From: Lichenostomus cassidix
Lineage: Eukaryota; Chordata; Aves; Passeriformes; Meliphagidae
NCBI GenBank assembly: GCA_008360975.2
Contig: CM039210.1
Coordinates: forward strand, 14,696,293 to 14,760,292
Direction of reading: 5' to 3'
DNA: 64,000 bases
The notes below the pieces were generated by a model. It saw nothing but the letters and a program-made list of their open reading frames with translations, searched no databases and was not told the origin of the DNA. Of this stretch, positions 14,374-64,000 are shown in pieces. Every line of letters starts with the position of its first letter. The stretch's first letter is position 1. A program made the translations under genes and the position numbers.

Positions 14374-15192
14374 CCCTTTGTTGAAGGGTAGGATTTGTTC
14401 CTTTTGTTTTCTTTCTCTTCGGGAATTTTTGTCCTATCTGTTACTATGACACCTTAACTCTCGGTACTTAAGAGAGACAAAATAAGTTTCCAAGCTCAGG
14501 AAAGGAGGGCACCTGACTGCACTCCTCCTGTCCCAGGCTTTCTCTGGGGGGAAGAGAAATATCATGAGGAACTGGGCTAAAAAAAGAGAGTTGGGGGCAG
14601 CCCCTGCCTCTCTTGCTTCTGGGGCACCGGAGGAGACAGCAGAGTTTCCGTAGCTAGGAGAGAGTTCACTGTGACCGCCAGAGCCCAGCATCTGCATTTC
14701 TTCCTTACTGGGCAAGCTTTCGTGTGTAAGAGCAGCCATTTGAACTGGGACCTTTTTATTAACACCAAATTTGACTAGGGAGGACCTTTACCATCCACCC
14801 AGGTTCCTCAGGGGAAACCCAGGGGCCATTCCCCCAATGGAGGAGTCTGGCTGCGGCTCCCTAGCCCTGCAACTTTCCTGCCGCTGACTCGGGTTGCTTT
14901 TCTTCTACACTGTGGCCCCACATCCCCCGCCTGCCTGGACACACCACAGCTTCTGCCACAGCTGCAGAGTATCTGCCACCTCTTGCTTGCGGTCCTGGAT
15001 GAGCCAGACCTGCTGTTCCAGCCTGATGCTCTGAGGTTTCCTACTGCAGCTTGCCATCCAGCTGGCCCGCCATTACTGCCTGAGGGAAGCTCACCTGACC
15101 TTGCGCCACAACGCCCCTTGCAGCTGCCCATGAGTCATTGCACCTGCCCTGCCTGGCTGGGAGCTCAACAGCGCCTCTGCCGGTTGTGACCA

Positions 15193-15905
15193 TGTGGCAG
15201 GACAAACACCCCCCCCTTCTCTCTCTCCCTGACTGCTGGCCGAGATCGATGGCTCAGATTAAGTCAATGGCTTAATCCGGACTATCAATGCTGGCATCTG
15301 GAACTCAGAGCGAGACACTGAGAGAATGTGAATAATTTTCAAGTGACCGCAAATACACACTCTTTTCCCTATAAAACACCACGAAAATCTCAGCAAAAGT
15401 AGAAGCTTTCTACATGGACATTGGAGCGTGAAAAGCCTCTCCCCTGAGTTTGGACGCAAGCTCTGTGGTTACTTCCCCGAGGGATTGAGAGAGGATCTGG
15501 TGCATCCCCAGCTCCAAAATTGGATTTGGTAAGAAGCATTCAGTTTCCTAAATTGTATTCTTCTTTGCTAGCTACAATAATATTAATAGGTACCTTTTTC
15601 ATTTTTAGCGCTGTATTGTTTTTAATCTCCCCATTTTGGGCACATATATATATATGTTTGTTTTAGCTATGAATAGCTTTTCATGTTTTGTGTAGTAAAA
15701 TTTGTCTAGTTCTTTGTTCTGTTCTCACCTGTGTCTAATAAACCATAATCTATTTTACATTAGACATAAATCGGCTGTCTTTATAAGGACTTATGAGTGA
15801 AACTGGGTTTTAGGGTGCTGGTCACTCTGAGTAGGTTTGGTCATCAGTTGTCATAGGCCTAGGCAACTGGTAAAATCTATATACCCTCTGTTTCCACTCG
15901 TGACA
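15193..15905 (+). repeat. 5' LTR of ERV C
   Basis: Starts TGTGGCAGGACA and ends CCACTCGTGACA. CCTATAAAACACC near 15370 is the probable TATA box and TCTAATAAACC near 15735 the polyadenylation signal. A solo copy of the family lies at 41393-42114. Confidence 0.9.
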
Positions 15906-15911: not shown

Positions 15912-15929
15912 TGGCATAGTCGGCAGGAT
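15912..15929 (+). other. Primer binding site, tRNA-Ser type
   Basis: TGGCATAGTCGGCAGGAT complements the 3' end of tRNA-Ser(AGA) at 17 of 18 positions. A serine primer is known for the class III family HERV-S, which fits the pol sequence. Confidence 0.75.
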
Positions 15930-16814
15930 AGATGGCTAACGATTTGAGAACTGAGAGTAAGGAACTTACACAATATTTACGGAGGCACAATATTCACATT
16001 GATACCGATGATCCCTGGCCCACAAGTAACTGGTTTCAGTGGGAAAACATAAAGGAAAAATTAGATGAAAAACGGGGATCATTAAAAGATACCAAAGGAA
16101 AGGGCATTATTTGTCATGTATTCGCCCTATGTTTAAACTCTGCTTGGAGATGGAGAGAACAAATAATAAAAGAAAATGAAAAATTGATGAATGAAATACA
16201 AAGATTAAAATTGGCACAATTATCCCTGCAAAGCCAATATAACCAGGCAAAACAGGGGCTGAAAGAATCCAAAAAACATGCAAAAATGGTGGAGGAAAAA
16301 TTGGAATTAACATTATTGCATATTCCCAAATCTATGGATGTCAGAAAAATTAAAAAATTAATAACATCTCCTGAAAATTGGGATGGTGACATCTGGGAAA
16401 GCTCTGATGAAAATTATAATGACATCTTTGAGTTAGATTCAGATGAAAACACGGAACTTCCACCGTCTGAGGGGGAAGAAATTCCAGAATTTAAAATGAA
16501 ACCCATAATAAAAACTGAAATATCTCAGGGCCCGCAAAGGCGAGGCCAGCAAACTACCACCAAAACAACCCCGTATGATGCCTTACAAATGGCAAACATT
16601 AAAGAAAAATATTCAAGAAAGGCGGGGGAAAGTGAAACAGAATATTTATGGAGAGTTTGCCTCACAGGAGGAGATAATGTATTATTAGATGGCTCAGAGA
16701 GCTATGGCTTCTGGGGTCCAGGAGTATTTTTACACCTTGGACCACAACCCCCTGACGAGCCACACTCCATCACTAGCAGAGTGGCTTACTGGGCAGGAGG
16801 AACAAACCAGATGG

Positions 16815-17290
16815 TGAGACTCTGAGCTTTTTGCCCCCTTCCACCAGCACAGGCGCCTGTCTGTGGCCGCCAGGGCTGAAGGCTGAACTCTTAATTCAAA
16901 TTCAAATTGTAGGTAACAGCTCTGGCCTGATGGCTTATCAGCTAAGCATGCATTTGAAACCAGCACAGAAACCGCTGAATCATCCCATGAAGGACTGTCA
17001 CCTTGGAGGAGGCTTTGGGGGTCTCCAAAGACCACCAGGACATACGGAGCATGCGTTGTGCACATGCTAATGATATTAATGACTTCCGAGAAATGATTTG
17101 TATAACCACTCCTATCCTGAAGAATGTAATTAATATTCATGATTTTACCTATAACTCTGTGTCTTTGGGGTACTGAGGTGTGTGTGTTTGGTGGAAACAA
17201 TCCCCACACATCCGGTGCACCGAATAAAGCAAATACCCACTTCTCTGACTTGGTCTCTGAAGTGTCACTGAGCTCGATTGGGGCGAATCA
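16815..17290 (+). mobile_element. Solo LTR, D family, in ERV C gag
   Basis: 476 bp, TGAGACTCTGAGC to GGGGCGAATCA, with a perfect 4-bp duplication ATGG (16811-16814, 17291-17294). Four bp suits a gamma-type integrase. It matches both LTRs of ERV D; an AATAAA lies near 17224. LTR plus duplication is 480 bp, a multiple of three. Confidence 0.95.
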
Positions 17291-17487: not shown

Positions 17488-18791
17488 TGTGGTGGTTTTG
17501 ATTGGCCCAAAACATCAGCGAAGTATTTTTAACATCTAGGAGAAATTTGGGCCCCTCAGAAGCTGTTCTAGTAGGCCTAGGGAGGTGTCTGAGGGGTGGG
17601 GTGTGGCACAAAGATGGCTCCTGTGTGTCCTGAGTGCAAGTTCTGGAAGTTTTTACATCAAGTCCAGCAGAGCCAATCTCTGATGGCTCTGAAGGTGATG
17701 GACATGCTGCCGGCCAAGTTTGGGCCAATTGGAGGTGCTGGTTACGCCTCTGTGAAAACATATTTAAGAAAAAGTCAAAACAAAGCAGGCGCGCACTTCT
17801 TTCACTTTGTAGTTGGAGGAGGAGGAGGTGCAGGTGAAAATATGTGAGGGAGAACAGCATGGAGAGTGCCAAGGTCAGTGAAGAAGGGGGGAGAAAGAGG
17901 TGCTCCAGTGCTTCCGGCACCAGAGCTGAAACTTTCTGCTAGCCGTGGTGGAAGCTATGGGGGAGCCAGAAATTCCTCCTGCAGCCCATGGAGTCCATAA
18001 GGATGCAGAAATACACCCACAGCCTCTCTCCAGAGGAGGAGGTGGATGCCTGGAAAAGACTGTGAACCAGTGGGAGTCTCATCTAAGAGTTAAAACTGCA
18101 AAAGGCCTTGACTGAGAGAGATAGGCCTTGCTCCTGGCATGGAAGCAGCCTGGCCTCAGCTCGGGAGAGTCTGCACAGCACCTTATGGACAAAAGACTCA
18201 TGTTGCAGCAAAAATTCGGGCGGGATGTTGCTCATGAGATTGGACCCACGCCAAAGAAGTTCCTAGAGGACTGTCTCTCGTGGGAAGGACCCCTGGCTAA
18301 GTAGAGAACCTCTTTTCCTGATTGGACTGACCAGAAGACCCCTCAACCTGCCCCCTGTCTGTGTTGCTAGTTTGCAAAGAGGGAAAAGGGGGGGGGTGAG
18401 TGCAGAGACTGCTTCTTAAGAGGGTGGGGGTGAGAGCAGAAAACTGTCTGAAGAGAGAGAGAAACAAGTAGAGATAAAGAGTATTTGTGGTAGAAGAATT
18501 GTGGTGATGAGTAAATTTGAGAATCTGCTCTGTGGACTGAAAAGAGACCCCACACCCTGCCCCCCCCCACCTGGCTTGTGGATTGTAGAGGAGGAAAGGG
18601 GGTGAATACTATAGGTTCGTAAGAGGGAGGGGGGGAGTGAAAAAAATAATGTATGAAAAGTATATTTTTGCCTTGCATTTATCCTCCAATTCTGTTAGGT
18701 AATTAAACACTTTTTGCAACTTTAAGCTTGAAGCCTGTTTGCCCTTTTTCGTGCGTCCTCCTGGCAAGGGTCCTGTCTCAAACCCACGACA
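17488..18791 (+). mobile_element. Solo LTR H, 1304 bp, in ERV C gag
   Basis: Starts TGTGGTGGTTTTGATTGG and ends AAACCCACGACA, flanked by a perfect 5-bp duplication GTACA (17483-17487, 18792-18796). It is long for an LTR. ACATATTTAAG near 17760 could be a TATA element and GTAATTAAACAC near 18700 a polyadenylation signal. An 83-codon ORF inside (17596-17847) is not convincing as a gene. The 3' half recurs, inverted, at 34709-35294. Confidence 0.85.
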
Positions 18792-19212: not shown

Positions 19213-22200
19213 TTGCAACTCAAAAAAAAACTGACAAGCGCTGGAACGCCAGGGCAGCCGAGCCAGCGCTCAGACACACCCAAAAAACCTAGCCCACATG
19301 TGTATTTGCCCGTAGGGCCAAAGAGACAGCCTCTGAAATTCCTTATTGATACTAGAGCCCAAATCTCTTTAATCTCTCTAGCAGACGCTGCAAAATTAAA
19401 CTTAAGTTTTAAAACGAGGAAAAAGATACTTTTAACTGGTTTTAATGGAGACAGTACCACAGCTTACTTAGCAAAAATCCGGTTGTGGTTACCTGGAAAA
19501 AAAAGAATGACAGCTCATATTTTTGCTATTGCTGATCATGAAGAGAGCATTTTAAGATATGATATCCTTCAAGGAAAAAAGTGGCAATTACAAGACGGTA
19601 CTATCTGGTCTTTTGGTTCTGCAGAAACCTCACGCAGTAACCTTTTTGGAAAAAATAGAAAAATAAAACTTCTAAAAATGGCTCAAATATTACCTGTGTC
19701 TGCTGTAACTAATGTCAAACAATATCCCATACCTCTAGCAGCCAAAAAGGGAATTGATGCGGTAATCACAAACTTAGAACAAAGAAATATCATATATAGA
19801 ACACAGTCTCCTTTTAATTCCCCTGTCTGGCCAGTAAAAAAGCCAGATGGGAACTGGAGATTAACTGTTGATTATCGAAGATTAAATTCTAACACGGGAC
19901 CCCTAGCAGCGGCTGTTCCCAACATTGCAAACTTAACTTCCACACTGCAGGCTTCTGCTCACGAGTGGATGGCTGTGCTAGATATAAAAGACATGTTTTT
20001 CATGGTACCAATTCGTGAGGAAGATAAACCTAAGTTTGCGTTCACTTGGGACGGAGTACAATACATGTTCAATCGACTGCCTCAAGGTTATAAACACTCC
20101 CCCACTATAGCACACAATGCTTTAGCTGAGTTACTCCAACAAGTACAAATACCAGAAAGAGTGCAAATGTATCAATACATCGATGATGTATTGGTGGGTG
20201 GTAAAGAAGAAACAGCAGTAAGGGTTGCTGCAGAAAACATATGGAATAAATTGAGCGAAGAGGGAATAGAAGTACCTATAACCAAATGTCAGGGACCTTC
20301 TAAAGAAGTAAAGTTTTTAGGAGTCTGGTGGGTTTCAGGCAGAGCTGTAATTCCGGAGGAAACTGTTACAAAATTAGACACCATACCTACCCCCACAACT
20401 AAAAAGGAACTGCAGCAGATAATGGGTACCTTGGGGTACTGGAGAAAGCATGTTCCTGGGTTTTCCATAATAGCAAGACCCTTATACACACTAATGAGAA
20501 AAAATCAAGCATGGGAATGGGATGATGTTCACCAACAAGCTCTGCAAACATTAATAGAAGAATTAAAAACCTACCAATCCCTTGGTCCAGTTCATCCCAG
20601 TGATCCCATAGTAGTTGAGTGGGGTTTTGCTGAACATGGAACTTACTGTAATTTATTTCAAAAAGGACCTGAAGGACCCAAACGTCCACTGGGATTCAAC
20701 TCCACATCATTTAAAGACACTGAAAAAAGATATTCCAACTGGGAAAAAGGACTTTTATCACTTACTAGAGCTCTCAAGCAAGTAGAGAGATTTCAGCAGC
20801 TGCAGCCTGTTAAAATTCAAGGACCTTTCAGCTTGCTTAGTAGTGTAACAAAAGGCTCTGCTCCGCCTGAGGGAATTGCACAAAGACCCACAGTACACAA
20901 ATGGTTTGCATACCTCACAGGTATCACAGACCAAATGGTTATCACTGAAGGGCCGATAAAACCTACTAAATTACAAATGGACATTCCCCCAGACACTCTG
21001 GCTCTGCAACAGCCGTTCAAAAGCAGCCCAATAACCGACGCCCCTGCGTTTTCCCCAGGTTCTGAAGTAGAAGGTGTATGGTTTACTGACGCCTCAGCTA
21101 AGCGAATTGATGGAATATGGAAGTACAGAGCAGTAGCTCTGAATGTTGAAACGGGAGAGGAAGTGATAGAAGAAGGTTTAGGAAGTGCACAAGTAGGAGA
21201 ATTGAAAGCAGTGTTACTGGCAGTAAAGAGAAAGGCAGAGAAAGTATATGTGGATTCTTACGCCGTCTGGGCTGGAGCCACACAATGGTTGCGTCAGTGG
21301 GAAGCGTTGAATTGGCAGGTAAATGGGAAGACAGTTTGGCAAAAAGAGGATTGGCAGTGGTTGTTAACAGAAGCTCAGAATCGAAAAATCCAAATAGGCT
21401 GGGTTAAAGCACATTCAAATGACCACACATTGCAATCGTTTTGGAACAACAAAGTAGATAATCTAACAAAAATAAAAAAGATAAAAAGTGATGAATTAGA
21501 AGACTCACAACACTGGTACAGATTAGCAGAATTTTTACATTGTAAATTAGAACACATGGGTGAAAGTGCTCTCTTTTTTGCAGCACAAAGTAGAGGATGG
21601 CCCATAACCAGACAAATGTGCAAAAATATTCTCACACAGTGTCCACAATGTCAGCTGAGACTCAAACAAAATCATCCAGATCAAGCACCACCCTTACACA
21701 TCAAAGATAATAAAGCACTGAGGTCAACCTGGCAAATAGATTATATTGGACCTTTAAAACCATCTAATGGTTATAAATACATATTAACAGGAGTTGAAGT
21801 TGTATCTGGACTAATAAAGGCCACAAAAACCAGACAAGCTAACACAGAAGCCACTATCTCAGGACTTAGTGAGTGGTTTTCTAGCCTTCCTATTCCAGAC
21901 TCCATACAGAGTGACAATGGATCACATTTTACCAGTACAGCAGTACAAGATTGGGCCAGGAAGGAAGGTATCAAGTGGATTTTTCACACACCTTATTATC
22001 CACAGGCAAACGGAATGGTGGAACGGGCCAATGGTTTACTGAAACCCTACCTTAAACCACAGAATTCTAACTGGGACAAACGGTTATCTTATGCTCTTTA
22101 TCAGTTAAATAATAGATATGGAGTGATGTGTAGTCCAATCTCACGAGCTTTCTTAAGCCCTGTGTCTTTTCAGACAACTCCACATAAGAAGATTGAAACT

Positions 22201-22368
22201 TTTCAAAATAATCTAACAGTGGGCCAACAAGTTATGGTAAAATTACCCCAAATTGGAATTGTACCAATGATGCTGACAAGTGCTCGAGGGCCCATGGCTT
22301 GGGTAGCTACTGATTCTAATGGGCACCAGCATAGAATCAGCTCTCGATGGGTATATCCCACATTTTAA
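19213..22368 (+). CDS. pol: ERV C pol: protease, RT, RNase H, integrase
   Basis: A single open frame of 1051 codons (open from 19147; first ATG-like start at 19213). Protease comes first, with FLIDTRAQISLIS where DTGA is expected: the active-site glycine is arginine. RT follows with LTVDYRRLN, RLPQGYKHSP and YQYIDDVLVGG. RNase H has VWFTDASAK and VYVDSYAVW. Integrase has its zinc region near residues 770-820, then STWQIDYIGPL, QSDNGSHFTS and NGMVERANGLL for the D,D,E triad. The sequence resembles ERVL-type (class III) pol. The frame differs from gag once the inserted LTRs are discounted, so gag-pol expression was probably by frameshift or a separate start. Confidence 0.9.
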   Translation: MQLKKKLTSAGTPGQPSQRSDTPKKPSPHVYLPVGPKRQPLKFLIDTRAQISLISLADAAKLNLSFKTRKKILLTGFNGDSTTAYLAKIRLWLPGKKRMTAHIFAIADHEESILRYDILQGKKWQLQDGTIWSFGSAETSRSNLFGKNRKIKLLKMAQILPVSAVTNVKQYPIPLAAKKGIDAVITNLEQRNIIYRTQSPFNSPVWPVKKPDGNWRLTVDYRRLNSNTGPLAAAVPNIANLTSTLQASAHEWMAVLDIKDMFFMVPIREEDKPKFAFTWDGVQYMFNRLPQGYKHSPTIAHNALAELLQQVQIPERVQMYQYIDDVLVGGKEETAVRVAAENIWNKLSEEGIEVPITKCQGPSKEVKFLGVWWVSGRAVIPEETVTKLDTIPTPTTKKELQQIMGTLGYWRKHVPGFSIIARPLYTLMRKNQAWEWDDVHQQALQTLIEELKTYQSLGPVHPSDPIVVEWGFAEHGTYCNLFQKGPEGPKRPLGFNSTSFKDTEKRYSNWEKGLLSLTRALKQVERFQQLQPVKIQGPFSLLSSVTKGSAPPEGIAQRPTVHKWFAYLTGITDQMVITEGPIKPTKLQMDIPPDTLALQQPFKSSPITDAPAFSPGSEVEGVWFTDASAKRIDGIWKYRAVALNVETGEEVIEEGLGSAQVGELKAVLLAVKRKAEKVYVDSYAVWAGATQWLRQWEALNWQVNGKTVWQKEDWQWLLTEAQNRKIQIGWVKAHSNDHTLQSFWNNKVDNLTKIKKIKSDELEDSQHWYRLAEFLHCKLEHMGESALFFAAQSRGWPITRQMCKNILTQCPQCQLRLKQNHPDQAPPLHIKDNKALRSTWQIDYIGPLKPSNGYKYILTGVEVVSGLIKATKTRQANTEATISGLSEWFSSLPIPDSIQSDNGSHFTSTAVQDWARKEGIKWIFHTPYYPQANGMVERANGLLKPYLKPQNSNWDKRLSYALYQLNNRYGVMCSPISRAFLSPVSFQTTPHKKIETFQNNLTVGQQVMVKLPQIGIVPMMLTSARGPMAWVATDSNGHQHRISSRWVYPTF

Positions 22369-22545
22369 ACGGTAACAAAGCTGGTTTCGCTTAGGGCAAG
22401 ACCCTCTGGCCACTGAAAACTCATAAAACCGTCCCTACACTGCCCCCATGTGACAGCAGTGAAAATAGCGACCTGTTTCCAACTACAGGCCAATAGAGGG
22501 AATGACAACTCTCAAAGAAAATGTTAATCACTATTTAAATTCTGT
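22369..22545 (+). other. ERV C pol-env spacer, left part
   Basis: 177 bp after the pol stop, without an ORF. It ends in TCTGT (22541-22545), the left target duplication of ERV B. It continues at 28525 on the other side of ERV B. Confidence 0.8.
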
Positions 22546-27957: not shown

Positions 27958-27989
27958 GGTGATAGGATTTCTGAGTTTCCCCAGGTTGA

Positions 27990-28007
27990 GCCCCACGTTG
28001 GGCGCCA
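27990..28007 (-). other. Primer binding site, tRNA-Lys1,2 type
   Basis: The minus strand reads TGGCGCCCAACGTGGGGC, an exact match to the tRNA-Lys1,2 primer site known from betaretroviruses. It begins five bases after the LTR. Confidence 0.9.
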
Positions 28008-28012
28008 AAATA

Positions 28013-28524
28013 TGTCTTGGTTTGAAAACAAACCAGTGGGAGATCACAAGTCAAGATTGAAATTAAAAAATAAGTGAAATAATACAAGGAAAAGCACTGA
28101 CAAAGTCAGATACAACCTAACACCCTGTTAGGGTGGTGGTAGCAGTCCAACTGAAGTAGTCCAGTTGAAGCAGTGATCCTGTGAAGGTCTAGTCTCCAGC
28201 TGAAGATCCAGTGGTAGCTCTGGTCCTCTGGGAACCCAGTAGACAGGGCTAGCTCAGGCATTTCCAAGGCCAGGTTATATCCAGGTGGGAACACCTGGCT
28301 CCTCCCTCCTCGGCAGAGCATCTCACAATGGGATGAGATAAGTCCATGAGTCACACGGTGGGTCCCTGATGGCCCATTGCCTGTCATGCGGGGTGGGTCA
28401 TTAGCAAGTGATAATAGCTAACGGATGGCCCATTGCCTGTCATCCGGAGTGGGTGATATCAGCTAATGGCCCACAGCTGGTGGTAATAGAATACTTAACT
28501 ACATCAATATTGCAACCTAGGACA
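28013..28524 (-). repeat. 5' LTR of ERV B
   Basis: 512 bp, almost identical to the 3' LTR. A further copy starts at 58301 and runs into the assembly gap. Confidence 0.9.
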
Positions 28525-28768
28525 TCTGTTGTTTTAGTTTCTCTAATAACCTTAAATATTTAAGAATATCCCCACCAGATCAAAGGCTAAGCGTGTGTTC
28601 CGGATGTGAGACAAGAAACGTGAGAAGCAAAATCAGAAAGAACTGCTTGCTACACGGCTGTGAAAACTTCAAAAAGTCCTGGACTCTTAAAGACAAACAA
28701 CATCCATTCCACATAAACGGAAAACCGCATGGAACTGCACACCAACCAGTAAATGTGTTGTAATCAAA
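28525..28768 (+). other. ERV C pre-env leader
   Basis: Begins with the right TCTGT duplication of ERV B. The stretch from about 28540 to 28660 (CTAAGCGTGTGTTCCGGATG, then TGAGACAAG) resembles 63560-63690 of ERV L and, inverted, 43840-43990 of ERV I, which are class I elements. It leads into the env start at 28769. Confidence 0.7.
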
Positions 28769-30079
28769 ATGTTAATGATAATGTTACTTGTGTTTTTATG
28801 CCTGCAAGTGACTGTTTTTAGCAATGCTAAATGGCACACCAGCCACCCTGACAAAACTTTGCAATTAGTCATTGTGAAAGGGAAACCAGAGAAAAATGTT
28901 AATACTTCCATGGCTCACTCTAACCTAACACAAATAGAGCAAATGCTATCTGACCCATGGAAAAGAAACACCCATCTCAAATTAGTACAAGCTGTAACTC
29001 TGATAGCCAATCGAAGTGATTGTTGGATCTGTTCTCAATTTCCTACTCACTCAGATGAAGGTACTCGAATGATGGGAATTCCCACACCAGGTATATTTTT
29101 CAATAGTATCCCTCCTGCCAAAATAATGTTCTTTCTGGGGGGAACAACAAGTCACACCATTATAGACCAACAAATCCTAACAATAGACATTGTAACTGTG
29201 GGAACTTCCTGTATTCACAGATATCTAGAGGGACCAGGAGTAACTTCACACCAAAAAATGAAATTACCTGAATGTAACCATGGTGTCAAAGTAGGAATTT
29301 ATCCCGAGTGCCATTCATATCTGGACGTAACTAAAAAAGGCATTTTAACCACGCAATGGTAGCCTATTCCAGACAGCATGGGATACTATTGGCTTTGTGG
29401 AAACCAAGCTAGAAAAGCTCTACCCCCTATGTGGGAAGGAATATGCACCATCGGTACAGTTGTCCCAGAAATAGACATTATTGACAAATCAGAATTTCCC
29501 CGAGGACACCTAAGATCTTTTATAACAAGACACAAACGAAATTTAAACCCCTTGGTTGAGAGGCCTACTGGATTTCATAAATTTGTAAGAGGGTTCTTAC
29601 CATGGATAGGAATACCTGAATTAGAAAAGGCAATAGTAAATATATCTGGAGTTATTGAACAAATAGAAAACCGAACAAATGATGCAATCAGTGCCTTACA
29701 ACAAGAAGTCACCAGCCTCTCAAAGGTAGTTAAGCAGAACCGAATGGCTTTAGACTTGATATTAGCCTCTAAAGGTGGAGTATGCACAGTCATCAACACT
29801 AGCTGCTGTGTATATGTAGATCAAACCCTCAGAATACAAACTGATCTAGAGGAAATTAGGAAAAACACTAAAATTTTACACGAAATCCAGAAAGATCAAG
29901 GAACATATTTATTTGACTGGATAACTTCGTGGATCCCAAATTTAAGTGCAATCATGAGAAAACTAATTGGTGCAATAATTGTAGTTGTAACATTAATGAT
30001 TGGAATCTGGATCATACTTCAAATTTGCAAAATTGGAATCAACAAAATAAGTAAATCCAATAATAATCGACATCTCTAA
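28769..30079 (+). pseudogene. env: ERV C env, gamma type, one premature stop
   Basis: Two ORFs in the same frame separated by a TAG at 29360-29362. The first has a hydrophobic signal-like start (MLMIMLLVFLCLQVTVFS) and a CWIC motif at residues 85-88, the CXXC of gamma-type surface subunits. The second holds a basic cleavage-like RHKR, a fusion-peptide-like region, an immunosuppressive-domain-like QNRMALDLILASKG, CTVINTSCC (CX6CC), and a membrane anchor (IIVVVTLMIGIWIIL) with a short tail. Subunit linkage by CXXC/CX6CC is known for gamma-type envelopes. As it stands it should yield only a truncated surface part. Confidence 0.88.
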
Positions 30080-30927: not shown

Positions 30928-31639
30928 TGTGGCAGGACAAATACCCCCCCCTTCTCTCTCTCCCTGATTGCTGGCCGAGATCGATGGCTCAGATTAAGTC
31001 AATGGCTTAATCCGGACTATCAATGCTGGCATCTGGAACTCAGAGCGAGACACTGAGAGAATGTGAATAATTTTCAAGTGACCACAAATACACACTCTTT
31101 TCCCTATAAAACACCACGAAAAACTCAGCAAAAGTAGAAGCTTTCTACATGGACATTGGAGTGTGAAAAGCCTCTCCCCTGAGTTTGGACGCAAGCTCTG
31201 TGGTTACTTCCCCGAGGGATTGAGAGAGGATCTGGTGCATCCCCAGCTCCAAAATTGGATTTGGTAAGAAGCATTCAGTTTCCTAAATTGTATTCTTCTT
31301 TGCTAGCTACAATAATATTAATAGGTACCTTTTTCATTTTTAGCGCTGTATTGTTTTTAATCTCCCCATTTTGGGCAACATATATATATGCTTGCTTTAG
31401 CTATGAATAGCTTTTCATGTTTTGTGTAGTAAAATTTGTCTAGTTCTTTGTTCCGTTCTCACCTGTGTCTAATAAACCATAATCTATTTTACATTAGACA
31501 TAAATCGGCTGTCTTTATAAGGACTTATGAGTGAAACTGGGTTTTAGGGTGCTGGTCACTCTGAGTAGGTTTGGTCATTAGTTGTCATAGGCCTAGGCAA
31601 CTGGTAAAATCTATATACCCTCTGTTTCCACTCGTGACA
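30928..31639 (+). repeat. 3' LTR of ERV C
   Basis: 712 bp, TGTGGCAGGACA to CTCGTGACA, paired with 15193-15905. The adjoining GACTG is the right target-duplication copy. Confidence 0.9.
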
Positions 31640-31910
31640 GACTGTAACTGCACAAAAGGGGAGGGTGCCTGGCAGCTTAGAGCAGGCTGCCACCAGGTTT
31701 CTGGTTTTGTTTGTTGTTGCTACTGTTGTTGTTGCTTGTTTGCCCTGTTATAGATACTAGTAAAGAACTGATATTCCTTTTCCCATATCTTTGCCTGAAA
31801 GCCCTTGATTTCAAAGTTATAATAATTCGGAGGGAAGGGGGGGTCACATACTCTATTCTAAGGGAGGTTCCCACCTGCCTTAACAGACACTTGTCTTTCA
31901 AACCAAGACA

Positions 31911-43812: not shown

Positions 43813-46800
43813 TATATTGTCTAATATTGTTCTTTTGTGTCCTCTTTGTCTGGAGTTTCACATTAGAGAGGAGTCTCTGGCCGTAGATCTCACAGTCGTG
43901 AGGGAAGTCAGCAGTTCTTTTTGCTTCTGTAGCTTGAGTGGCTCCTTGTCTCACATCTGGACACAGCTTTTTATTTGATGAGGACACACTGAAGGATGTT
44001 AAAACAAACTTGCACAATTATAACACATGTTAGAGTGGGGAGAAGGATGAATCCTTGCCTCTTTCAACTCCCCATTGGAAATTCTTATACAAATCAAGTT
44101 TCTAATAAGTGAGAAATTAAGATTTAATGAACTAATGTTTTACACTTCACAGGATTTTACAAGCACTTACAGCTCTGCTGCTTGAGCTGACCATGTGAGA
44201 GGCAATGTCTCACTTATTTTAACTTTCTTTCATTAATGATAGTGTATTTTTCAAATTGTTACTCTTCTAGTACTTTTGAAGACTCACTACTAAATACATT
44301 CTCTCCCCAGACTAGGGAGTGCTTCGCGAATCTTCCCTAGCCGGGATCTGAAGATTTATCACCTGAAAGCTGTGCAGTCATGGGTTCTCCTCAACCCCTT
44401 AAGGGAGGCTGAGTCAAACCCCCTCATTTTTCAATTCTAAATCCTCTTGTTTTATTAAACAAGATTCACAGTACAATAACTGCACCGGTCATTTACTCAG
44501 ATGCTCCTTGAGTCAATAAACTTTCAACTTGGTGTGAGACTTATCAGATATGTTTCTATTGTCAGCCCTCGGGCCTCATTTACTATCAGAGCTCTGGCTG
44601 CACAAATTTGCAGATAACACGGCCAGCCTCTGGCTACATTCTGAGACAATGAATAGCCTCCAGCCACTGGATCTGGCAGCTTACAAAATTAGCATCAGGC
44701 CACCATGTTCTCCAAAAGTGGCTGCCAAATTTTCAAAGCATGGGGAACAACACTTTTTGCAAAAGTTACTTGCCATGACAACAAACCATACAGAGAGGAC
44801 TGAACCCCCTTGGGGACTTGAATTAAGCACACATTGTCACGTTCTTGGCTGCCTGAACAGCCTGCACAGTGGCTCAGAGACACACCGTGTCCACACCTTC
44901 CCCTCAGCAGTTATAATTTTTTTTCTCTGCAGCAGTTAATTTGCATTTTTTCTAAGGCAATTTGGCTGCTTGAAGGCTAAAGAACTTAAAAGCACTTGAG
45001 CAAACTTTTGTTCAAAAAAACCCCCAACAACTCAGAGTAACTCAGGCAGGAGACTTTAACTCTGAAATAGTTAATTACAAAATTTGGTATATCCTTTATA
45101 CAAATTAATTTTCTGAGCGTTTTTTACACATGGAATTTTAGGGTTTTTTGTTTTGTTTTGTTTTTTTTTAACTAATCTCTAAATCTTCGTGTACATCAAA
45201 AGAATTTTAAATTTACCATGCACTTGTATTTTAAGCACAATAACATTTTGGTAGTTATTTCAAATAGAGACTAGCCAATTATACTTTTACTATTGATTTA
45301 TTTTCATTATCTATTATACCATTTTCCTTGAGGCTGCCCACACTTTTGGGTTTATTTCAGCACGACCTTTCAGGCAAAGCTACTACGGTGTTAGCTTTTG
45401 TAGTTCTTCACAATATTAATGTGCATTCCCACTTTAGTCATCAAATTTCTTTCTAGTAAATTACAATTACAATAAAGAACAAACAGAAATTTATGCATTT
45501 CAAACTTATTCCTCACATTTACTAATACTGGCTGAATAAGGAGCACACTTCATCTTTTCCACTTGCTCCTTGAATATTTGACCATTTTCTCTTTTGGGGA
45601 TAAAATTCAAAGTGAATTAAGAGCTTTGACATCTCTTTTCGATTTAGACCCACCTTAAAAGTTATTAAGGGCTTCTGTGTGGGGCATCCCTGGTATAATG
45701 GGAGCTCTTGACATTCTTAACAATTCATTTTTATTAATTGCTGGACTTTTTCCCCCTGAGGATTCAGTTGTTTCTACAGACATTCCTGCTTTTAGTGACT
45801 CTGCCTTGCAGAGAGCAGTCTGACCTCTTATCAGCCGCTGCTCTGATCGGCTTTCTCTTGCTGAGGAGGGAATGCCTTTGCCACGTCTTGGTGGCTGGCC
45901 CTGTCTCCTTTGCCCCAGGGGCTTCACAGTTTATTCTTTTGGGGCTGTAATACCTTTGGCAATCACCTTTGCCTTTGCCTTTTCTTTATCTTTTCTTACA
46001 TACATTTGCAGTATCTTTCTAACTAGTTCATTCAGGGGCTTATTCTGCCCTTCTTCTAGCCCCCACCCGCACTACTGCCTAGGGGTGCTCATTGTCCCAC
46101 AAAGTCATTCTGGTGACCAAGACAGAACTCTTAACAGACAATCCACATTTTCTAGACATTCCTTCCGCAGTATCCAAACGCAGCCCTTCCCCCTTCTACG
46201 CTCTCAGCAGGCACGGCCAGCAGCACAAGTGACCAGGGTGTCCCGCAGCCTCACGGAGGCTGGGAGGCCACAGCTGCCCTGCCCCAGGGGGCGGCAGGGT
46301 CAGGGACTGCCCGGTGCTGAGCCTGCAGCTGTCCCACAGCTCTAGCTCGGCTCCGCACCTCCCCACAGGCCCCCAGCCTGTGCATCCAGCCCCGCACCTC
46401 TGTGCTCGCTCCTGCCACTCCAAAAGCAGAGGATACAGGGCGCTGCAGCTCGCCCTGGGTCAGCTGCCAAAATTTTAGGCAAGATGGGGGAGGGTGCTGA
46501 AAAACTTCTCCTCTCTTCCTTCTTTTTCCTTCTTTCTTTTACTCTATTTACTTGTATGCTCTTTCTGCTACAACATTCTATACAACCATATTTCAGCAGC
46601 TACACACAGGAGTTCCAAAGAGGTACTTATAAGATTCAACTAGTTATTTTTATCTCGCGGGCGTCCCTGCATAAATTTATATGCCGGCAAAAATACAAAT
46701 TAACACAGGTAAAATTTTGCACACACAGTACACGCACACACATTCAAAAAAAAATTTCAAAAGCACTTGAGCAAATAGACAATATCACTTCCTCTCACAA

Positions 46801-46839: not shown

Positions 46840-47316
46840 TGAGACTCTGAGCTTTTTGCCCCCTTCCACCAGCACAGGCGCCTGTCTGTAGCCTCCAGGG
46901 CTGAAGGCTGAACTCTTAATTCAAATTCAAATTGTAGGTAACAGCTCTGGCCCTGATGGCTTATCAGCTAAGCATGCATTTGAAACCAGCACAGAAACCG
47001 CTGAATCATCCCATGAAGGACTGTCACCTTGGAGGAGGCTTTGGGGGTCTCCAAAGACCACCAGGACATACGGAGCATGCGTGGTGCACATGCTAATGAT
47101 ATTAATGACTTCCGAGAAATGATTTGTATAACCACTCCTATCCTGGGGAATGTAATTAATATTCATGATTTTACCTATAACTCTGTGTCTTTGGGGTACT
47201 GAGGTGTGTGTGTTTGGTGGAAACAATCCCCACACATCCGGTGCACCGAATAAAGCAAATACCCACTTGTCTGACTTGGTCTCTGAAGTGTCTCTGAGCT
47301 CGATTGGGGCGAATCA
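46840..47316 (+). repeat. 5' LTR of ERV D
   Basis: TGAGACTCTGAGC to GGGGCGAATCA; the polyadenylation signal GAATAAAGC lies near 47250. Copies: 16815, 39223 (solo), 53690, and a shortened one at 54699. Confidence 0.95.
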
Positions 47317-47319
47317 AAC

Positions 47320-47337
47320 TGGCACCCCAGATGGGAC
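47320..47337 (+). other. Primer binding site, tRNA-Arg type
   Basis: TGGCACCCCAGATGGGAC exactly complements the 3' end of tRNA-Arg(CCT) with its CCA tail. Confidence 0.85.
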
Positions 47338-47559
47338 CCTGACTCTGCTCGGCTGCCTGATCCTGGGGTAAGCAGACCTTCCAGTCGCGACCCTGAATTT
47401 TCAGGGGAAGCTCAGCTGTCCTCTGGCTCACGGCGGGAGTAGACTAAGGACCATCTGCACCAAATTAAGGTATTTGCTACTTTTAAAATAAATGCCTACA
47501 GGTCCGGGGTGATAGTCCCCGAGGGTGGGTTGAGACTGGGTCTCCCGACATTAGTCCCG

Positions 47560-47670
47560 GGCAAGGGGTTGGACCCCGCTGTCAGGAAAAGGTACTTCTA
47601 AAGGGTTGGACCCCGGGGTTGGACCCCGCTATAGTGAACGGTACCTTTAAGGGGGTTGGACCTCACTGTA
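47560..47670 (+). repeat. Hairpin repeats in the ERV D leader
   Basis: Four copies of GGGTTGGACCCC or close variants, two of them back to back. Each can fold as a GGGGT/ACCCC stem with a TGG loop. Equivalent arrays are in ERV L (about 60998-61075) and ERV I (54365-54440). Confidence 0.75.
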
Positions 47671-48226
47671 TTACACCATACTGTGATTTTGTTCTGTCTG
47701 TTGTTATTTTGTTACCGTATTACTGTGTCAATATTTTGTTGCCGTATTACTGTGTCAATATTTTGTTGCTGTGTGAGTGTGAATGAATGAGACGTGTCTC
47801 CGACACGAAGTGATAGCGGAGCTCTATTTGCGTTTCCGTTCTCTGGCGACAGAAACGGCCAGAGAAAAGCAAAGCGAGTGATAAAGAGTGAATGAGTATA
47901 AATAATATATAAACTGTTGGTTTGGAGTATCTGGAGGGGGGCAGATTGTATTATTAGAGGGGAAAGACTGAATTGAGAACACCCAGACCCTCTACACCTT
48001 TCTAATACAGCTCCTTGTGATTTCCTTTTAAAATCCTGTGTTTGGTGTGGAAACTGGACTTTTGTGTGCTTGTAATTGAAGGAATAGATTAGGGAAGAAG
48101 TGGCAGAGAGTAGTGTGACTTTGTGGCTGGTTCCCCAGATCTGAGGGGTTTTGAGAGGAAAAGTCAGAGGAGACGTGCAGGAAAGTGTACAAGGAAGAAG
48201 AGAGGGAGAATAAACAAAAGGAGGCA

Positions 48227-49750
48227 ATGGGATCATCAGAAAGCAAGGAAATACCCAAAAAAAGTCCCTTGGCATGTGTGTTAGCATATTGGAAACAATT
48301 AGGAGCATTCTCTGGGGGGACTATGAAAAAGAGCACCCTGATTAAATATTGTAATCAGTGGTGGCCACTGTACAAATTAGATGATGGTGAAAAGTGGCCA
48401 GAAAATGGGACTTTAAACTATAACACCCTGCTACAACTAATGTTATTTTTAAGGAGGGCAAACAAATGGGATGAGACCGCTTACGCTGATTGCTTTTTCA
48501 CTTTAAGACGTAAACCAGAATGGCAGAAACAATGTGGTATTAATTTAGCACCTCAGGACTCGATGGTCCTTGTATTGGAAAAAGAGGCAAAAGGGAAAAG
48601 CCGCATGATAAGGTGCTGTTCATCTTGCAGCATTGGACAGCGGTGTTTAAAGCTCAAAGCTGAGAGAGACCAGGATCCCCTAGAAACTCAGGAGTTGATG
48701 AACCCCAGTGGTGACACCCTAACATCAGGGGCAACATCCCGCAGGTCCTCAGTATCCCTGGAGGATAATGAGGATGAAGGGACAAGTGAAGCTAGCTCAG
48801 GAATATCATCCAGAACTAGAAGCAAGGCCCTTGTAAAAGAAAAACTAATAGCACCACTCAGACAAGTGGTAGGGCCAGACGGGGGAATAACAAAAGTTAA
48901 AACACCATTCACAGCTTTGGATTTAGATACCTGGAGGGAAGCAGCCAGGTTGTATAGAGAAGACCCTGAAAAGGTAGCAAAAAGGTTTGAATTAATTGTT
49001 AGAAATCAAGATATTGATTGGGAGGACATAGATTTAATGCTGTCAGAATTAACTGAAACAGAAAAGGCAGCAGTAATATCTGCAGCAAGAACACATGTGC
49101 AGGGACAGATAGCTACTGGAATATTACATGGGAATGTAGATAACATCTTTCCCATTTCAAATCCGCAGTGGGATGCGAACGATACACAAATGTATCCATT
49201 TTTGGTTAGATACAGGAAATTAGTACATTGGGGACTGCTAAATGCCATTCCTAAAACCATCGATTGGTCCTTATGATTCAATATTCACCAGGAAACCACT
49301 GAGTCCCCAGGCTCATTTATAGAAAGACTGAGAAATAATATGAGAAAACACACTACACTGGACCCAGCCTCTGAAGCCGGGCAACAACAGTTAATATCTT
49401 TGTTGATGGGTCAGTCAGCACCAGATATACGCAGAAAGTTGCAAAAGATTAAGGGACCAGATAGCCGGGACTTAGAAAAACTCTTAGCAGAAGCATGGGA
49501 AGTGTATAAGAACAGAAAACAAGCCGTCATGGTGGCAGTGGCACAGGCTGAGGAGCCAAACACCCCCAGGGGCGGGAGAAGGCCCCCACCTAGGGGGCAA
49601 AGACGGCAACGCCCAGGCCGTGACCAGTGCCTGTGCTGTGGGGGGTTTGGGCATTGGAAGCGGAATTGCCCTAACCGTGCTGCGATTATGCAGATGCAAT
49701 CACCAGCGCCGCCAGAACCAGTGACTGTAGCACAGCTGCATACGGAATGA
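48227..49750 (+). pseudogene. gag: ERV D gag with one premature stop
   Basis: Start ATG 48227 gives MGSSESKEIPKKSP, a myristoylation-type matrix start. Matrix (WPLYKLDDGEKWPENGTLN), an acidic/serine linker (SVSLEDNEDEGTSEASSG), capsid (FTALDLDTWREAARLYREDP, major-homology-like SFIERLRNNMRKH) and one knuckle CLCCGGFGHWKRNC near 49635 follow in a single frame. A TGA at 49274-49276 breaks capsid. The terminal TGA at 49748-49750 is in frame with pol. Length otherwise fits a gammaretroviral gag. Confidence 0.88.
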
Positions 49751-49768
49751 CGGGGACCGGCAGGTCCC
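49748..49768 (+). promoter_or_regulatory. Candidate UGA readthrough signal
   Basis: TGA is followed by CGG, a context known to favour readthrough in some RNA viruses. A perfect GGGACC/GGTCCC stem with a GGCA loop (49753-49768) follows. Pol continues in the same frame. Confidence 0.6.
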
Positions 49769-52700
49769 TCCCTAGCAGACCCGCTGGTTAAAATTAAGCT
49801 AGGGGAACGGGAGGTGGAGTTTTTGGTGGATACTGGAGCCACATTCTCAGTCCTGAATCAAACTTTGAGTCCTATAAGCAATAATTACATCCGAGTTATC
49901 GGGGCCACGGGAAAAAGTGAAAATGCCTACTTTTTGAGACCTTTAAAATTTACATTAGGCAAGAAAATGGGAATACACCAATTTTTATATCTTCCAAATT
50001 CACCAAAACCCCTATTAGGCAGAGATCTACTAACCTGGTTAGAAGCAAAAATAGAATTCACAGAACAAGGAATGAGACTACAGGTCCCTGAGGAAAAATT
50101 GATTATGGCTTTAAGCCTAGCAAATATCCCTGAAAAAGAGGAAATACCCATAGATAGTGAAATAACAGATCAAGTGTTCCCCTTGGTATGGGATGTCAAA
50201 ATTCCAGGAAGATCAAAACAGGCTTCCCCAGTGGTTATTGAACTGCTGGAAGGAGTGCAGCCAGTATCAGTAAAACAATATCCACTAAGGCATGAAGCAC
50301 GGGTAGGAATAGAACCAATAATTGCTAAATTTATTGATCAAGGGTTGCTGAGAGAATGTAGGTCTGCCTACAATACCCCAATTCTACCAGTGCAAAAGCC
50401 AAACGGGAGTTACAGATTAGTTCAGAACCTGAGGGCAATAAATGCCATAACAAAAACACTACATCCTGTAGTGTCTAACCCTTACACCTTGCTTACAAAA
50501 TTGCAAAATGACTGGGTGTGGTTTTCAGTTTTAGATTTAAAAGATGCTTTCTTTTGTCTGCCATTAGCTGAAAGCAGTCAGGAAATTTTTGCATTTGAGT
50601 GGGAAAACCCCAAAACAGGGAGAAAAAGCCAACTTACATGGACTGTATTGCCACAAGGATTCAAAAATAGCCCCACGATATTTGGAGATCAATTAGCTAA
50701 AGAACTGGAAGGCTGGACGCCGCCCCTTGGGGAAGGTACACTTCTGCAGTATGTTGATGACCTACTAATAGCAACAAGGACTCGTGAAGACTGCAAGAAC
50801 TGGACTGTAAGCCTTTTAAATTTTCTGGGACTAAATGGATATAGAGTCTCTCCTGAGAAGGCTCAGTTGGTCCTCCAAAAAGTCACATATCTGGGATATG
50901 AATTGGCAGGAGGAGAGAGAGCCTTGGGAAACAACAGGAAGGAGGCAATCTGTCAAATGCCCCAGCCAACTACAATCAAAGAACTGAAAACCTTTCTGGG
51001 CATGACAGGATGGTGTAGATTGTGGATCCCTCGTTATGGGCTGATTGTGAAACCCCTGTACCTACTCCTAAAGGAAACCAAGGGGACCTACCTATGCTGG
51101 ACACCAGAGACTAATAATGCATTTGTAACCCTGAAACGTGAACTAATGCAAGCCCCAGCATTGGGTATACCAGATATCACTAAACCTTTTCTGTTGTTCT
51201 CACATGAGAGGCAAGGACTGGCATTGGGACTTTTGGCACAGAAGCTGGGACCCTACAAAAGGCCAGTGGCTTACTTCTCCAAGCAATTGGATGTGGTCAG
51301 CCAAGGATGGCCCGCCTGCCTGCGTGCAGTGGCAGCTGTGATCCTGAACATAGAAGAAGCCCGCAAGTTCACAATGGGCCAGAAGATAACTGTTTTTGTC
51401 TCTCATACAGTGTCAGCAGTGCTCACGCAGAAAGGAAATCACTGGTTAACACCATCTCGCTTTCTCAAATATCAAGCTGTCCTAGCAGAATCGGAGGATG
51501 TGAGTATCCAGGTAACCAACATTTTAAATCCAGCAGCTTACCTCCAGGGCAGAGCTACTGAAGAGCCTGTACAACATGACTGCATTGAAACCATGGAGGC
51601 AGTTTACTCCAGCCGCCCAGACCTGAAGGACTCTCCGCTGGAGGATGCGGAAAACTGGTTCACTGATGGAAGCAGTTATGTCAGAGATGGTAAGCGCCTT
51701 GCTGAGTATGCAGTTACAACCACAGATGCCGTCATTGAAGCAAAACCGTTACCTGTGGGGACATCTGCTCAAAAGGCTGAGATAATAGCTCTAACTCGAG
51801 CCTTGACATTAGCCAAAGGAAAGCCTGTCAACATTTGGACTGATTCAAGGTATGCCTTTGGGGTGGTACATGCTCACGGGGCTATCTGGAAGGAGAGAGG
51901 TTTATTAACCTCGCAGAAGAAAGAAGTCAAGCATGCCACTGAAATCTTACAATTGCTAGAAGCAGTGCTGAACCCTTCAAAAGTGGCTATAATGCATTGC
52001 AAAGGGCACTCCCAGGGGAACACCATCCCTGAACTGGGAAATGCAATGGCAGACAAAACAGCAAAGGCAGTGGCTGGTACAGTTCAAATACAAGCCCTAG
52101 CTCTAATCCCTTCTAGCATCCTTATGGGTGAGAAACCCCCACCATATGACACTGATGATTTGAATTGGATACAAAAAGAGAAAGGACAAATAGGAGCAGA
52201 TGGGTGGGCTAGAATAGAAGATCTCCTGGTCATACCCAGAAAATTGTTAAAGTTATTTATCCAAAGCAAACATTCCAAAACACATTGGGGAGTTGATGCC
52301 TTACATAACTATTTAAAGAGCAAAGTGATAGCAACAAAGTTAAAGGAGACAATTGAGGACATAACTTCCACTTGTGAAATCTGTCTTAGAAACAACCCTA
52401 ATACCACTGTTAGGCAAAACACTGGAACAATCCTCAAAGGAGCCTTACCAGGGGACGTATGGCAAATTGACTTTTCTGAATTACCTAGAAAAGGGGGATA
52501 CAAGTACCTTTTAGTCCTCACAGACACTTTCTCCGGTTGGCCGGAAGCCTTCCCTTGTAGAACAAATAAAGCTAGAGAAGTTGTTAAAGCCTTAGTACAA
52601 GAGATAATTCCACGATTTGGGGTACCCAGGGAGATTAATTCTGATAGGGGATCACACTTTGTAGCTCAGGTGGTTCAGGGAGTAAGTAATCTACTAGGCA

Positions 52701-53290
52701 TACGCTGGCAACTACATACACCATACAGGCCACAGGCAAATGGACAAGTCGAAAAGATGAATCACTTAATAAAGCAACAATTAGCCAAAATTTGTCAAGA
52801 AACCAACTTATATTGGTATCAGGCTCTGCCCATGGCTTTGCTGAGAATTAGGGTAAAACCACGGCTCAAGGAAAAACTGAGTCCCTTTGAAATTTTGTAT
52901 GGAAGGCCCTATGGAACAAACATGATTCACAATGACAGTGTGGCTCTGGTAGGGCAAAGCTATCTAATAGATTATGTAAAACATTTAGGTCAAAAGTTAC
53001 AATCAATACACACTACTGTTGTTAATTGTAAACCCCCACCACCTGATAAACCCTTTCATAATGTGAATCCGGGGGACTGGGTTTATGTTAAGTCTCTTTC
53101 AGGAAATCCACTCCAGGAAAAGTGGGAAGGACCTTATCAAACGTTGCTGGTGACTCATACAGCAATTAAAGTACAGGGAAAATCGACTTGGATCCATTAT
53201 ACCAGGACCAAACTTGCACCAAGACCAGAGTGGGAGACAAGAAGAACAGGACCTCTGCGCCTTCAAATACGAAAAATCAATACCACATGA
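49751..53290 (+). CDS. pol: ERV D pol: protease, RT, RNase H, integrase (intact)
   Basis: Open from the gag stop to 53290. Protease has [15 protein letters not shown] and LLGRDLL. RT has [25 protein letters not shown] and [11 protein letters not shown], the gammaretroviral style. RNase H has [24 protein letters not shown] and [10 protein letters not shown]. Integrase has its zinc region ([15 protein letters not shown] to STCEICLRN), [36 protein letters not shown], and a C-terminal domain with [13 protein letters not shown]. All catalytic acidic residues are seen. No methionine start is required if it is made by readthrough. Confidence 0.95.
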
Positions 53291-53689
53291 TCTAGACTAT
53301 GCTAGTGATGCTGGTAATTGGGGCAGGTGCATGGGACCAAATGCATACTTTCAATTAATGGACAGTTATAAATACAAGGTGCTGCAGTTACAAAATACAA
53401 ATGCTGCATCAGATCACTTTAGATAATACTTCTTGAGGGTTTAAAGAGGTTTAATGGGACAAACTTATAGCATGGTTAAACAATTGTTTGTAATAGTTAT
53501 TTGTATTTTGTATTTTCACTTGCTGTTTGTATTAGTAGTTACTGTTGTATAATATTATGTACTTAGAACTGTGATGCTTATATTCAATGGCAAAAGTATA
53601 AACTTAGATATGAAATAGAGAAAGGTATTTACTTTCATAGCATACAAGATTTGTAAAGAATTACAAATTACAAAAGAAAAGGGGGGGAT
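53291..53689 (+). other. ERV D pol-LTR spacer (no env)
   Basis: About 400 bp without env domains. It ends in AAAAGAAAAGGGGGGGAT (53672-53689), the polypurine tract. A 70-codon ORF overlapping the pol end (53214-53426) is not recognisable. Confidence 0.8.
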
Positions 53690-54165
53690 TGAGACTCTGA
53701 GCTTTTTGCCCCCTTCCACCAGCACAGGCGCCTGTCTGTAGCCTCCAGGGCTGAAGGCTGAACTCTTAATTCAAATTCAAATTGTAGGTAACAGCTCTGG
53801 CCTGATGGCTTATCAGCTCAGCATGCATTTGAAACCAGCACAGAAACCGCTGAATCATCCCATGAAGGACTGTCACCTTGGAGGAGGATTTGGGGGTCTC
53901 CAAAGACCACCAGGATATACAGAGCATGCGTTGTGCACATGCTAATGATATTAATGACTTCCGAGAAATGATTTGTATAACCACTCCTATCCTGAAGAAT
54001 GTAATTAATATTCATGATTTTACCTATAACTCTGTGTCTTTGGGGTACTGAGGTGTGTGTGTTTGGTGGAAACAATCCCCACACATCCGGTGCACCGAAT
54101 AAAGCAAATACCCACTTGTCTGACTTGGTCTCTGAAGTGTCTCTGAGCTCGATTGGGGCGAATCA
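53690..54165 (+). repeat. 3' LTR of ERV D
   Basis: 476 bp, followed by duplication GTTT. It differs from the 5' LTR by about seven substitutions. Confidence 0.95.
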
Positions 54166-63180: not shown

Positions 63181-64000
63181 GAAACTTGATTTGTATAAAG
63201 GATATACCAAATTTGGTAATTAACTATTTCAGAGTTAAAGTCTCCTGCCTGGGTTTCTCTGAGTGGTTGGTTTTTTTTATGAACATAGTTTTGCTCAAGT
63301 GCTTCTGAGTTCTTTAGCCTTCAAGCAGCCAGAGAAATTGCCTTAGAGGAGATGCAAATTGACACTGCTGAGGGAAAGTGTGAACAATGTCTTCCCCTCA
63401 AAACCAAGCTCTGTGTGCTTGCAGAGAAGGAAAACAAAACTGTCTGTGTTGCAAATTAAACTAGCTAGCATAAAAAATAAGAATTTCCAATGGGGGTTTA
63501 AGGAGGCAAGAATTCATCCTTCTCCCCACTCTAACGTGTTATCACTGTACAAGTTTGTTTTAATATCATTAACAACTTTGAATGTTCAAGTGTGTCCTCA
63601 TCAGATAAAAAGCTAAGTGTGTCCAGATGTGAGACAAGGAGCCACTCAAGCCACAAAAGCAAAAGAACTGCAGACTTCCCTCATGACTGTGAGATCTACG
63701 GCCAGAGACTCCTCTCTAGTGTGAAACTCCAGACAAAGAAGACACAAAAGAACCATATTGGACAATTGTTGGAATTTAGATTGCAGAACAAAGCTATATG
63801 AATATGTTTCTTAAGCTTAATTCAACTGTGTGAGCTACTCTAAGGTGCCTTTCCCAAGAAGATAACAGAATGTAAGGAGCCAAAAAATGTGAGCATCATA
63901 AAAGAATGTAAAACAAGATAAAACAGTTACCTAGAGAGAACCTTAGCTAATACTTAGAGAGCATGATAAAGAGCCTCAGCCAATTAGCAGAGTAGATTAG

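What the first reader, a model, noticed from the sequence alone, without database searches (positions are those of the whole stretch)
28530..30079. Class III element with a gamma-type env: recombinant
ERV C has an ERVL-like pol and a tRNA-Ser primer site, but env has CXXC, CX6CC and an immunosuppressive-like region of gamma type. ERVL families normally lack env. The pre-env leader (about 28540-28660) resembles those of class I elements L and I, which places a recombination junction at or upstream of about 28540.
Basis: partly seen in the sequence, partly recalled or inferred. Interest (0 to 1): 0.8.

Follow-up and report, generated by a model that had tools for sequence, protein, structure and literature searches.

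The report
Bird retrovirus with swapped envelope gene
An old retrovirus copy in a bird genome joins the enzymes of one retrovirus class to the envelope gene of another, and the same join is found in many copies across the genome, so it is an inherited viral hybrid and not a local accident; a similar hybrid is known from frogs.

Summary
ERV C is one provirus (15193-31639): its LTRs differ at 11 of 712 sites, and its flanks fit a 5-bp target duplication whose empty form is seen in a paralogue. Gag-pol is class III (ERV-L type integrase zinc finger, no Cys-His box, no dUTPase; pol clade apart from class I). Env has a gamma-type TM (TLV_coat 2e-22). A younger minus-strand provirus (22546-28524) splits the pol-env spacer.

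The join is not local. Of 36 other env loci read in the same genome, 27 have class III pol C upstream, 3 have class I pol and 6 are unresolved. Pol and env identities fall together in the 27 (rho 0.93), so the union predates their divergence.

The leader matches class I elements L and I (E 3e-11 to L); L has a distant env just beyond the window. The three more distant env rows with known pol are class I, which favours capture of a class I env by class III. SU and TM trees disagree about three close class I copies, so a return transfer is possible.

Class III pol with class I env is published for frog XtERV-S; this is a new bird member of that kind.

The parts
15193..15905 (+). 5' LTR of ERV C
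   Evidence: Differs from the 3' LTR at 11 of 712 aligned sites (which began one base inside); boundaries; one AATAAA at 15737
15912..15929 (+). primer binding site, tRNA-Ser-like
   Evidence: Sequence; tRNA identity recalled; XtERV-S has a tRNA-Ser(AGA/TGA) site
15932..16814 (+). first part of gag, cut by a solo LTR at 16815 and further on by a second one
   Evidence: Open frame; no CX2CX4HX4C box in the three gag pieces read
16815..17290 (+). solo LTR of the class I J family inside gag
   Evidence: 98% to the LTR at 53690-54165; ATGG on both sides
17488..18791 (+). second solo LTR-like insertion, GTACA on both sides
   Evidence: LTR identity inferred from TG...CA ends and the flanking repeat
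19213..22368 (+). pro-pol ORF, class III (PR-RT-RNaseH-IN); the protease D-T-G triad reads D-T-R
   Evidence: Pfam; motifs; tree
22369..22545 (+). 5' half of the pol-env spacer
   Evidence: Contiguous with the leader in L002-L010
22546..28524 (-). younger class III provirus without env nested in the spacer (LTRs differ at 3 of 511 sites)
   Evidence: TSD TCTGT at 22541-22545 and 28525-28529; gag and pol ORFs; pol
28525..28768 (+). pre-env leader; 28529-28646 is similar to class I elements L and I
28769..29362 (+). env, SU part, with CWIC; ends at an in-frame TAG
   Evidence: 42 genome matches
29378..30079 (+). env, end of SU and TM: RHKR, CX6CC, gamma-type TM
30928..31639 (+). 3' LTR of ERV C
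15188..15192 (.). left target duplication copy GACCA; right copy GACTG at 31640-31644; paralogous empty site reads GACCG
63477..63766 (+). leader of element L (homologue of the ERV C leader)
   Evidence: L's env TM lies beyond the window at L038:2346-2759
43816..44088 (-). leader of element I
   Evidence: 85% to L
46840..54165 (+). class I provirus J (gag-pol, no env seen between pol end 53287 and the 3' LTR), used as the class I yardstick
   Evidence: MLV-type RT 660 bits; GTTT on both sides; boundaries

Best explanation
ERV C belongs to a bird family of class III retroviruses whose ancestor gained a leader and a gamma-type env from class I retroviruses. The inferred mechanism is template switching between co-packaged RNAs just after the pol stop. 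The env-bearing virus then spread as a unit; ERV C and 27 other loci here keep pol C and env side by side (segmental duplicates not removed). ERV C inserted as one pol-env provirus, later took one nested provirus and two solo LTRs, and is now defective (gag interrupted, protease triad altered, one stop in env). Shown: fit to one integration, class III pol, gamma-type env, the join in many loci, co-divergence of pol and env, class I carriers of related env. Inferred: the template switch, the direction class I to class III, and the past infectious role.
For: Single integration: LTRs differ at 11 of 712 sites, and flanks GACCA and GACTG fit decay of a GACCG site that is empty in a paralogue. Join repeated: 9 of 9 loci L002-L010 on five contigs have C integrase and a contiguous spacer before env. 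Of 36 env loci other than ERV C, 27 have pol C upstream, 3 have J-like class I pol, 6 are unresolved. Integrase and SU nucleotide identities to C correlate, rho 0.93, n=27. Class I association of related env: L035-L037 (J-like pol; TM 75-77%), L064 (TM 44%), element L (TM 46%), and an eagle gene model with IN 69% to J. On the TM tree the three labelled rows outside the ERV C env clade (L, L064, eagle) are all class I, and 2 changes of pol class are needed. Leader block shared with L and I; some older class III copies match L over longer stretches than ERV C does, e.g. L026 166 bp 72% and L022 140 bp 74% against 121 bp 73%.
Against: Polarity rests on three labelled outgroup rows; the pol partner of the other bird and turtle env proteins is unknown, and the eagle row is a gene model. 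The TM tree puts class I L035-L037 inside the class III env clade (AU p 0.0196 against class III as one clade), while the SU tree puts them outside (its bootstrap had not settled). L035-L037 lack the leader, and L shares the leader but only a distant env, so no single donor is seen. Env in class III may be old: other class III groups carry env in the literature (PMC4299795, PMC8278194).
Confidence: 0.74

Rival explanations
1. Env was ancestral in this class III lineage, and class I elements such as L035-L037 took it from class III; the bird class III is not the recombinant.
For: TM tree nests L035-L037 in the class III env clade. Chong 2014 reports env in several ERV3 groups and suggests that lack of env is derived. 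XtERV-S joins a tRNA-Ser site, class III pol and a gamma-type TM.
Against: SU tree separates class III from L035-L037 with 100/100 support. The three more distant env relatives with known pol (element L, L064, eagle) are class I.
Confidence: 0.25
2. Pol and env were put side by side after integration, by nested insertion or DNA rearrangement.
For: A 6-kb provirus lies between pol and env.
Against: The nested provirus has a clean TCTGT duplication; the same join without it is seen at 9 of 9 loci; LTRs and flanks fit one insertion.
Confidence: 0.01
3. The leader similarity comes from convergence or a shared repeat and not from viral recombination (compatible with an env exchange without it).
For: The block is short in ERV C, with no significant flanking match; no RNA structure signal and no Rfam hit. 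A genome-wide search with the leader did not complete.
Against: L also carries an env downstream of it; some class III copies match L over up to about 165 bp at about 69-75%.
Confidence: 0.12

Closest known systems
XtERV-S of Xenopus (Yedavalli et al. 2021, PMC8278194; abstract and passages read)
   Same: Class III gag-pol, tRNA-Ser primer site, gamma-type TM, CWIC in a short SU, furin-like site near codon 254 counted through the stop (251-255 there), CX6CC, no Cys-His box in gag
   Different: XtERV-S is intact and has a dUTPase after integrase; ERV C is defective and has none; no direct sequence comparison could be made
Avian ERV3, CrocERV16 and CrocERV17 (Chong et al. 2014, PMC4299795; section 7 and passages read)
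   Same: ERV3/class III, no dUTPase, env reported in several ERV3 groups
   Different: Sequences not compared here; whether the avian groups there include this family is unknown
ENS-3 pol of birds
   Same: Pol 53% identical to a crane protein so named, and in the same 12-row pol clade
   Different: Env linkage of ENS-3 not tested
TgERV-F (alpharetroviral songbird provirus with gamma-type env; as described in PMC10536682, passages read)
   Same: Bird retrovirus with a gamma-type env taken from another class
   Different: Alpharetrovirus backbone
ERV-L of mammals
   Same: Same class by pol
   Different: No env; dUTPase present (table)

Membership tests
Class III (ERV-L/ERV3-like) pol | Integrase zinc finger HX4HX28CX2C and YIDD, as listed for XtERV-S and ERV-L in Table 2 of PMC8278194 | tested here: met
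   table
Class III (ERV-L/ERV3-like) pol | Integrase DX58DX35E spacing (listed in the same table; one-residue differences, not taken here as defining) | tested here: not met
   DX57DX35E in ERV C; class I element J also DX57; nested class III element DX58
Class III (ERV-L/ERV3-like) pol | Pol clusters apart from class I | tested here: met
   23-row clade without J, 100/100 (long branches meet in that tree); J hits MLV-type RT at 660 bits, ERV C at 173.5; best solved-structure match of the ERV C integrase is foamy integrase. No labelled mammalian ERV-L row was available
Class III (ERV-L/ERV3-like) pol | No Cys-His box in gag | tested here: met
   None in the three gag pieces of ERV C; present in J at 49628
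Mammalian ERV-L | dUTPase after integrase | tested here: not met
   No dUTPase hit up to E 0.1; pol ends at residue 1051
Mammalian ERV-L | Lacks env | tested here: not met
   Env at 28769-30079
Gamma-type env | CXXC in SU, CX6CC in TM, TM homology to gammaretroviral env | tested here: met
Avian gamma-type env | Cysteine pair around an internal fusion peptide (PMC3758190, passages) | tested here: not met
   No cysteine between RHKR and CX6CC in the translated ORF
XtERV-S kind (class III gag-pol with class I env) | Both parts in one provirus | tested here: met
XtERV-S kind (class III gag-pol with class I env) | tRNA-Ser primer site | tested here: inconclusive
   18-nt site present; tRNA 3' end recalled, not fetched

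The most novel reading that the evidence does not exclude
Env has moved both ways: class III took a class I env and leader early in this bird lineage, and later a class I lineage (L035-L037) took a TM from the class III family, with a breakpoint inside env. The leader and env of ERV C may also come from different class I sources, making ERV C a mosaic of at least three viruses, with relatives of each source kept in one genome.
Probability: 0.35. Interest if true: 0.65.

Novelty: new member of a known kind. Interest (0 to 1): 0.45.

Why it matters
Class III retroviruses are usually presented as env-less from the mammalian examples. This genome holds both sides of a cross-class env exchange, class III carriers and class I relatives, in many copies, so the time and direction of the exchange can be tested. 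It extends the frog case to a bird and supports the view that class III viruses often had env.

Tried and rejected
Viral contig scans with TM and with pol found no relative. A profile search with 12 full-length env proteins returned only 8 proteins. The SU fold was unusable (mean pLDDT 41.8), so no fold search was made. No RNA fold stronger than shuffles in the leaders of C, L or I, no Rfam match in the window, no tRNA gene. J's own post-pol spacer does not match the ERV C leader (score 33, null mean 35). Passages of PMC3362752, PMC3958431, PMC2717909 and PMC5006616 did not say whether ENS-3 has env.

Whether pol C also exists as an env-less lineage: of the 49 integrase places I fetched 8 stretches without a nearby env hit. 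Two keep env remnants (L059, L063), 2 keep leader joined to post-env or LTR sequence (L057, L058), 1 keeps a leader fragment (L062) and 3 gave no env linked to pol C (L060, L061, L064), where loss and original absence cannot be told apart. Short fragments at C32:5190958, 4109622, 22133310 and 13429631, and the place C32:20484812, were not fetched.

A first AU test (p 0.006) counted rows of unknown pol as non-class III and was replaced. (leader tree, 31 rows) used rows for L026 and L028 trimmed to their match with L, so its 74-75% against 61% for ERV C is not a fair comparison and is not used.

The 42 env places come from 40 scored candidates of 83 and are a lower bound. I read 37 loci including ERV C; C32:13743481, C32:6534031 and C32:19957061 (further parts of split or nearby copies) were not fetched separately. 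TM trees used 19 loci (L052 left out as too short), 16 (the 19 less L048 and L054, and without P0001; L-row count includes element L) and 17; the SU tree used 25 loci.

Full report
Anatomy. ERV C spans 15193-31639 on the plus strand. Its two LTRs (713 and 712 bp) differ at 11 of 712 aligned sites. With a recalled avian rate near 2e-9 per site per year this is about 4 million years (inference). The outer flanks, joined to show the empty site, line up with a paralogous copy in the window. The paralogue reads GACCG where ERV C has GACCA on the left and GACTG on the right, which is what one 5-bp duplication with a decayed CpG would leave (inference). Gag starts at 15932 and is cut by two solo LTRs. 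Pol is an open frame, 19213-22368. A minus-strand class III provirus, 22546-28524, with TSD TCTGT, lies in the non-coding pol-env spacer. Env is at 28769-30079 with one in-frame stop.

Pol is class III. Its integrase zinc finger is HX4HX28CX2C and its RT has YIDD, which Table 2 of PMC8278194 lists for XtERV-S and ERV-L (passages). The integrase spacing is DX57DX35E, one less than listed. Among solved structures the integrase best matches foamy virus integrase; RT matches MLV and foamy RT about equally, unlike class I element J, which scores 660 bits to MLV-type RT. In a 30-row tree pol C groups with stork, crane (ENS-3) and, further out, turtle pol, and 23 rows including the nested element form a clade without J (100/100). 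Several long branches meet in that tree, and it holds no labelled mammalian ERV-L. The gag pieces have no Cys-His box, and no dUTPase was found.

Env is gamma-type. TLV_coat 2e-22; Syncytin-2 1.5e-20. Motifs: CWIC, RHKR, CX6CC. The TM search gave 65 proteins; the named ones are from birds and turtles. Most aligned rows that cover SU have a CWxC near its start.

The join is a family trait. The SU DNA has 42 matches in the 1.10-Gb genome, 35 of them on contig C32, where the window lies. All 9 of the next best loci, on C1, C4, C19, C32 and C76, have C integrase, an unbroken spacer and env. Over 36 loci other than ERV C, 27 have pol C upstream on the same strand; 3 (L035-L037) have class I pol 50-59% identical to J; 4 (L019, L030, L033, L034) have no pol C on the same strand in the fetched stretch; 2 (L024, L025, apparent duplicates of each other) show only a weak 29% J-like match. 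In the 27, integrase and SU identities to C fall together from 98% to about 71%, rho 0.93. Pol and env therefore diverged together, and the join is older than these copies. Segmental duplicates were not removed.

Where the env came from. Related env sits next to class I pol in L035-L037 (TM 75-77%, SU 44-62% by piece), in L064 (class I integrase 49% to J, TM 44%), and in an eagle gene model whose integrase part is 69% identical to J. Element L shares LTR and 5' leader with J (80%), and the continuation beyond the window shows a TM 46% identical to ERV C and a J-type LTR. In the TM tree the three labelled rows outside the ERV C env clade (L, L064, eagle) are class I, and 2 changes of pol class are needed: gain by class III, then return to class I in L035-L037. 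The SU tree needs no return. Holding class III together on the TM tree is rejected at p 0.0196. The conflict is unresolved, and many forks in these trees are weak.

The leader. The ERV C leader 28529-28646 is 73% identical to L 63555-63671 (E 3e-11). Only this block is significant in ERV C, but some older class III copies match L over longer stretches, for example L016 167 bp 71%, L026 166 bp 72% and L022 140 bp 74%. L035-L037 start env close to the end of pol and show no leader match. The leader and the env of ERV C may thus have come from different class I relatives. The junction lies between the pol stop at 22368 and the leader block; the nested provirus sits at its edge.

Known and new. 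XtERV-S of frogs has the same plan (PMC8278194: abstract and passages). Env in non-mammalian ERV3 is reported by Chong et al. (PMC4299795: section 7 and passages). PMC10536682 (passages) calls XtERV-S an unusual example of a class III backbone with class I env. I saw no report of this bird family in the listings of seven full-text searches of the held open library, which lacks most subscription journals. I file it as a new member of a known kind.

Noticed in passing
22546-28524 (-): Young class III provirus without env, LTRs differing at 3 of 511 sites, long open gag and pol; pol 90% identical to a Corvus protein.
   Followed up: partly
46840-54165 (+): Class I provirus J with gag-pol but no env, 4-bp GTTT duplication, inserted in the minus-strand element I.
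   Followed up: partly
11655-14369 and 31914-32297 (-): Old class III provirus of the nested type apparently split by ERV C and its flanking repeat: pol residues 1-128 lie on one side and 136 onwards on the other.
   Followed up: partly
window contig G000:C32 (24.1 Mb): 35 of 42 env matches lie on this contig, 2.2% of the genome; fits an ERV-rich W chromosome (PMC8310711, passages), not tested.
   Followed up: no
P0117 (Hirundo gene model): Gene model joining nested-type class III pol to a different gamma-type env; possibly an annotation artefact.
   Followed up: no
61424-63377 (+): Element L keeps a degenerate gag-like stretch with weak collinear matches to J (tblastx 6e-5) and a broken Cys-His box; no pol seen.
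   Followed up: partly
56712-58231 (+): Remains of another gamma-type env with CWIF, only 32% identical in TM to ERV C; owner element not resolved.
   Followed up: no
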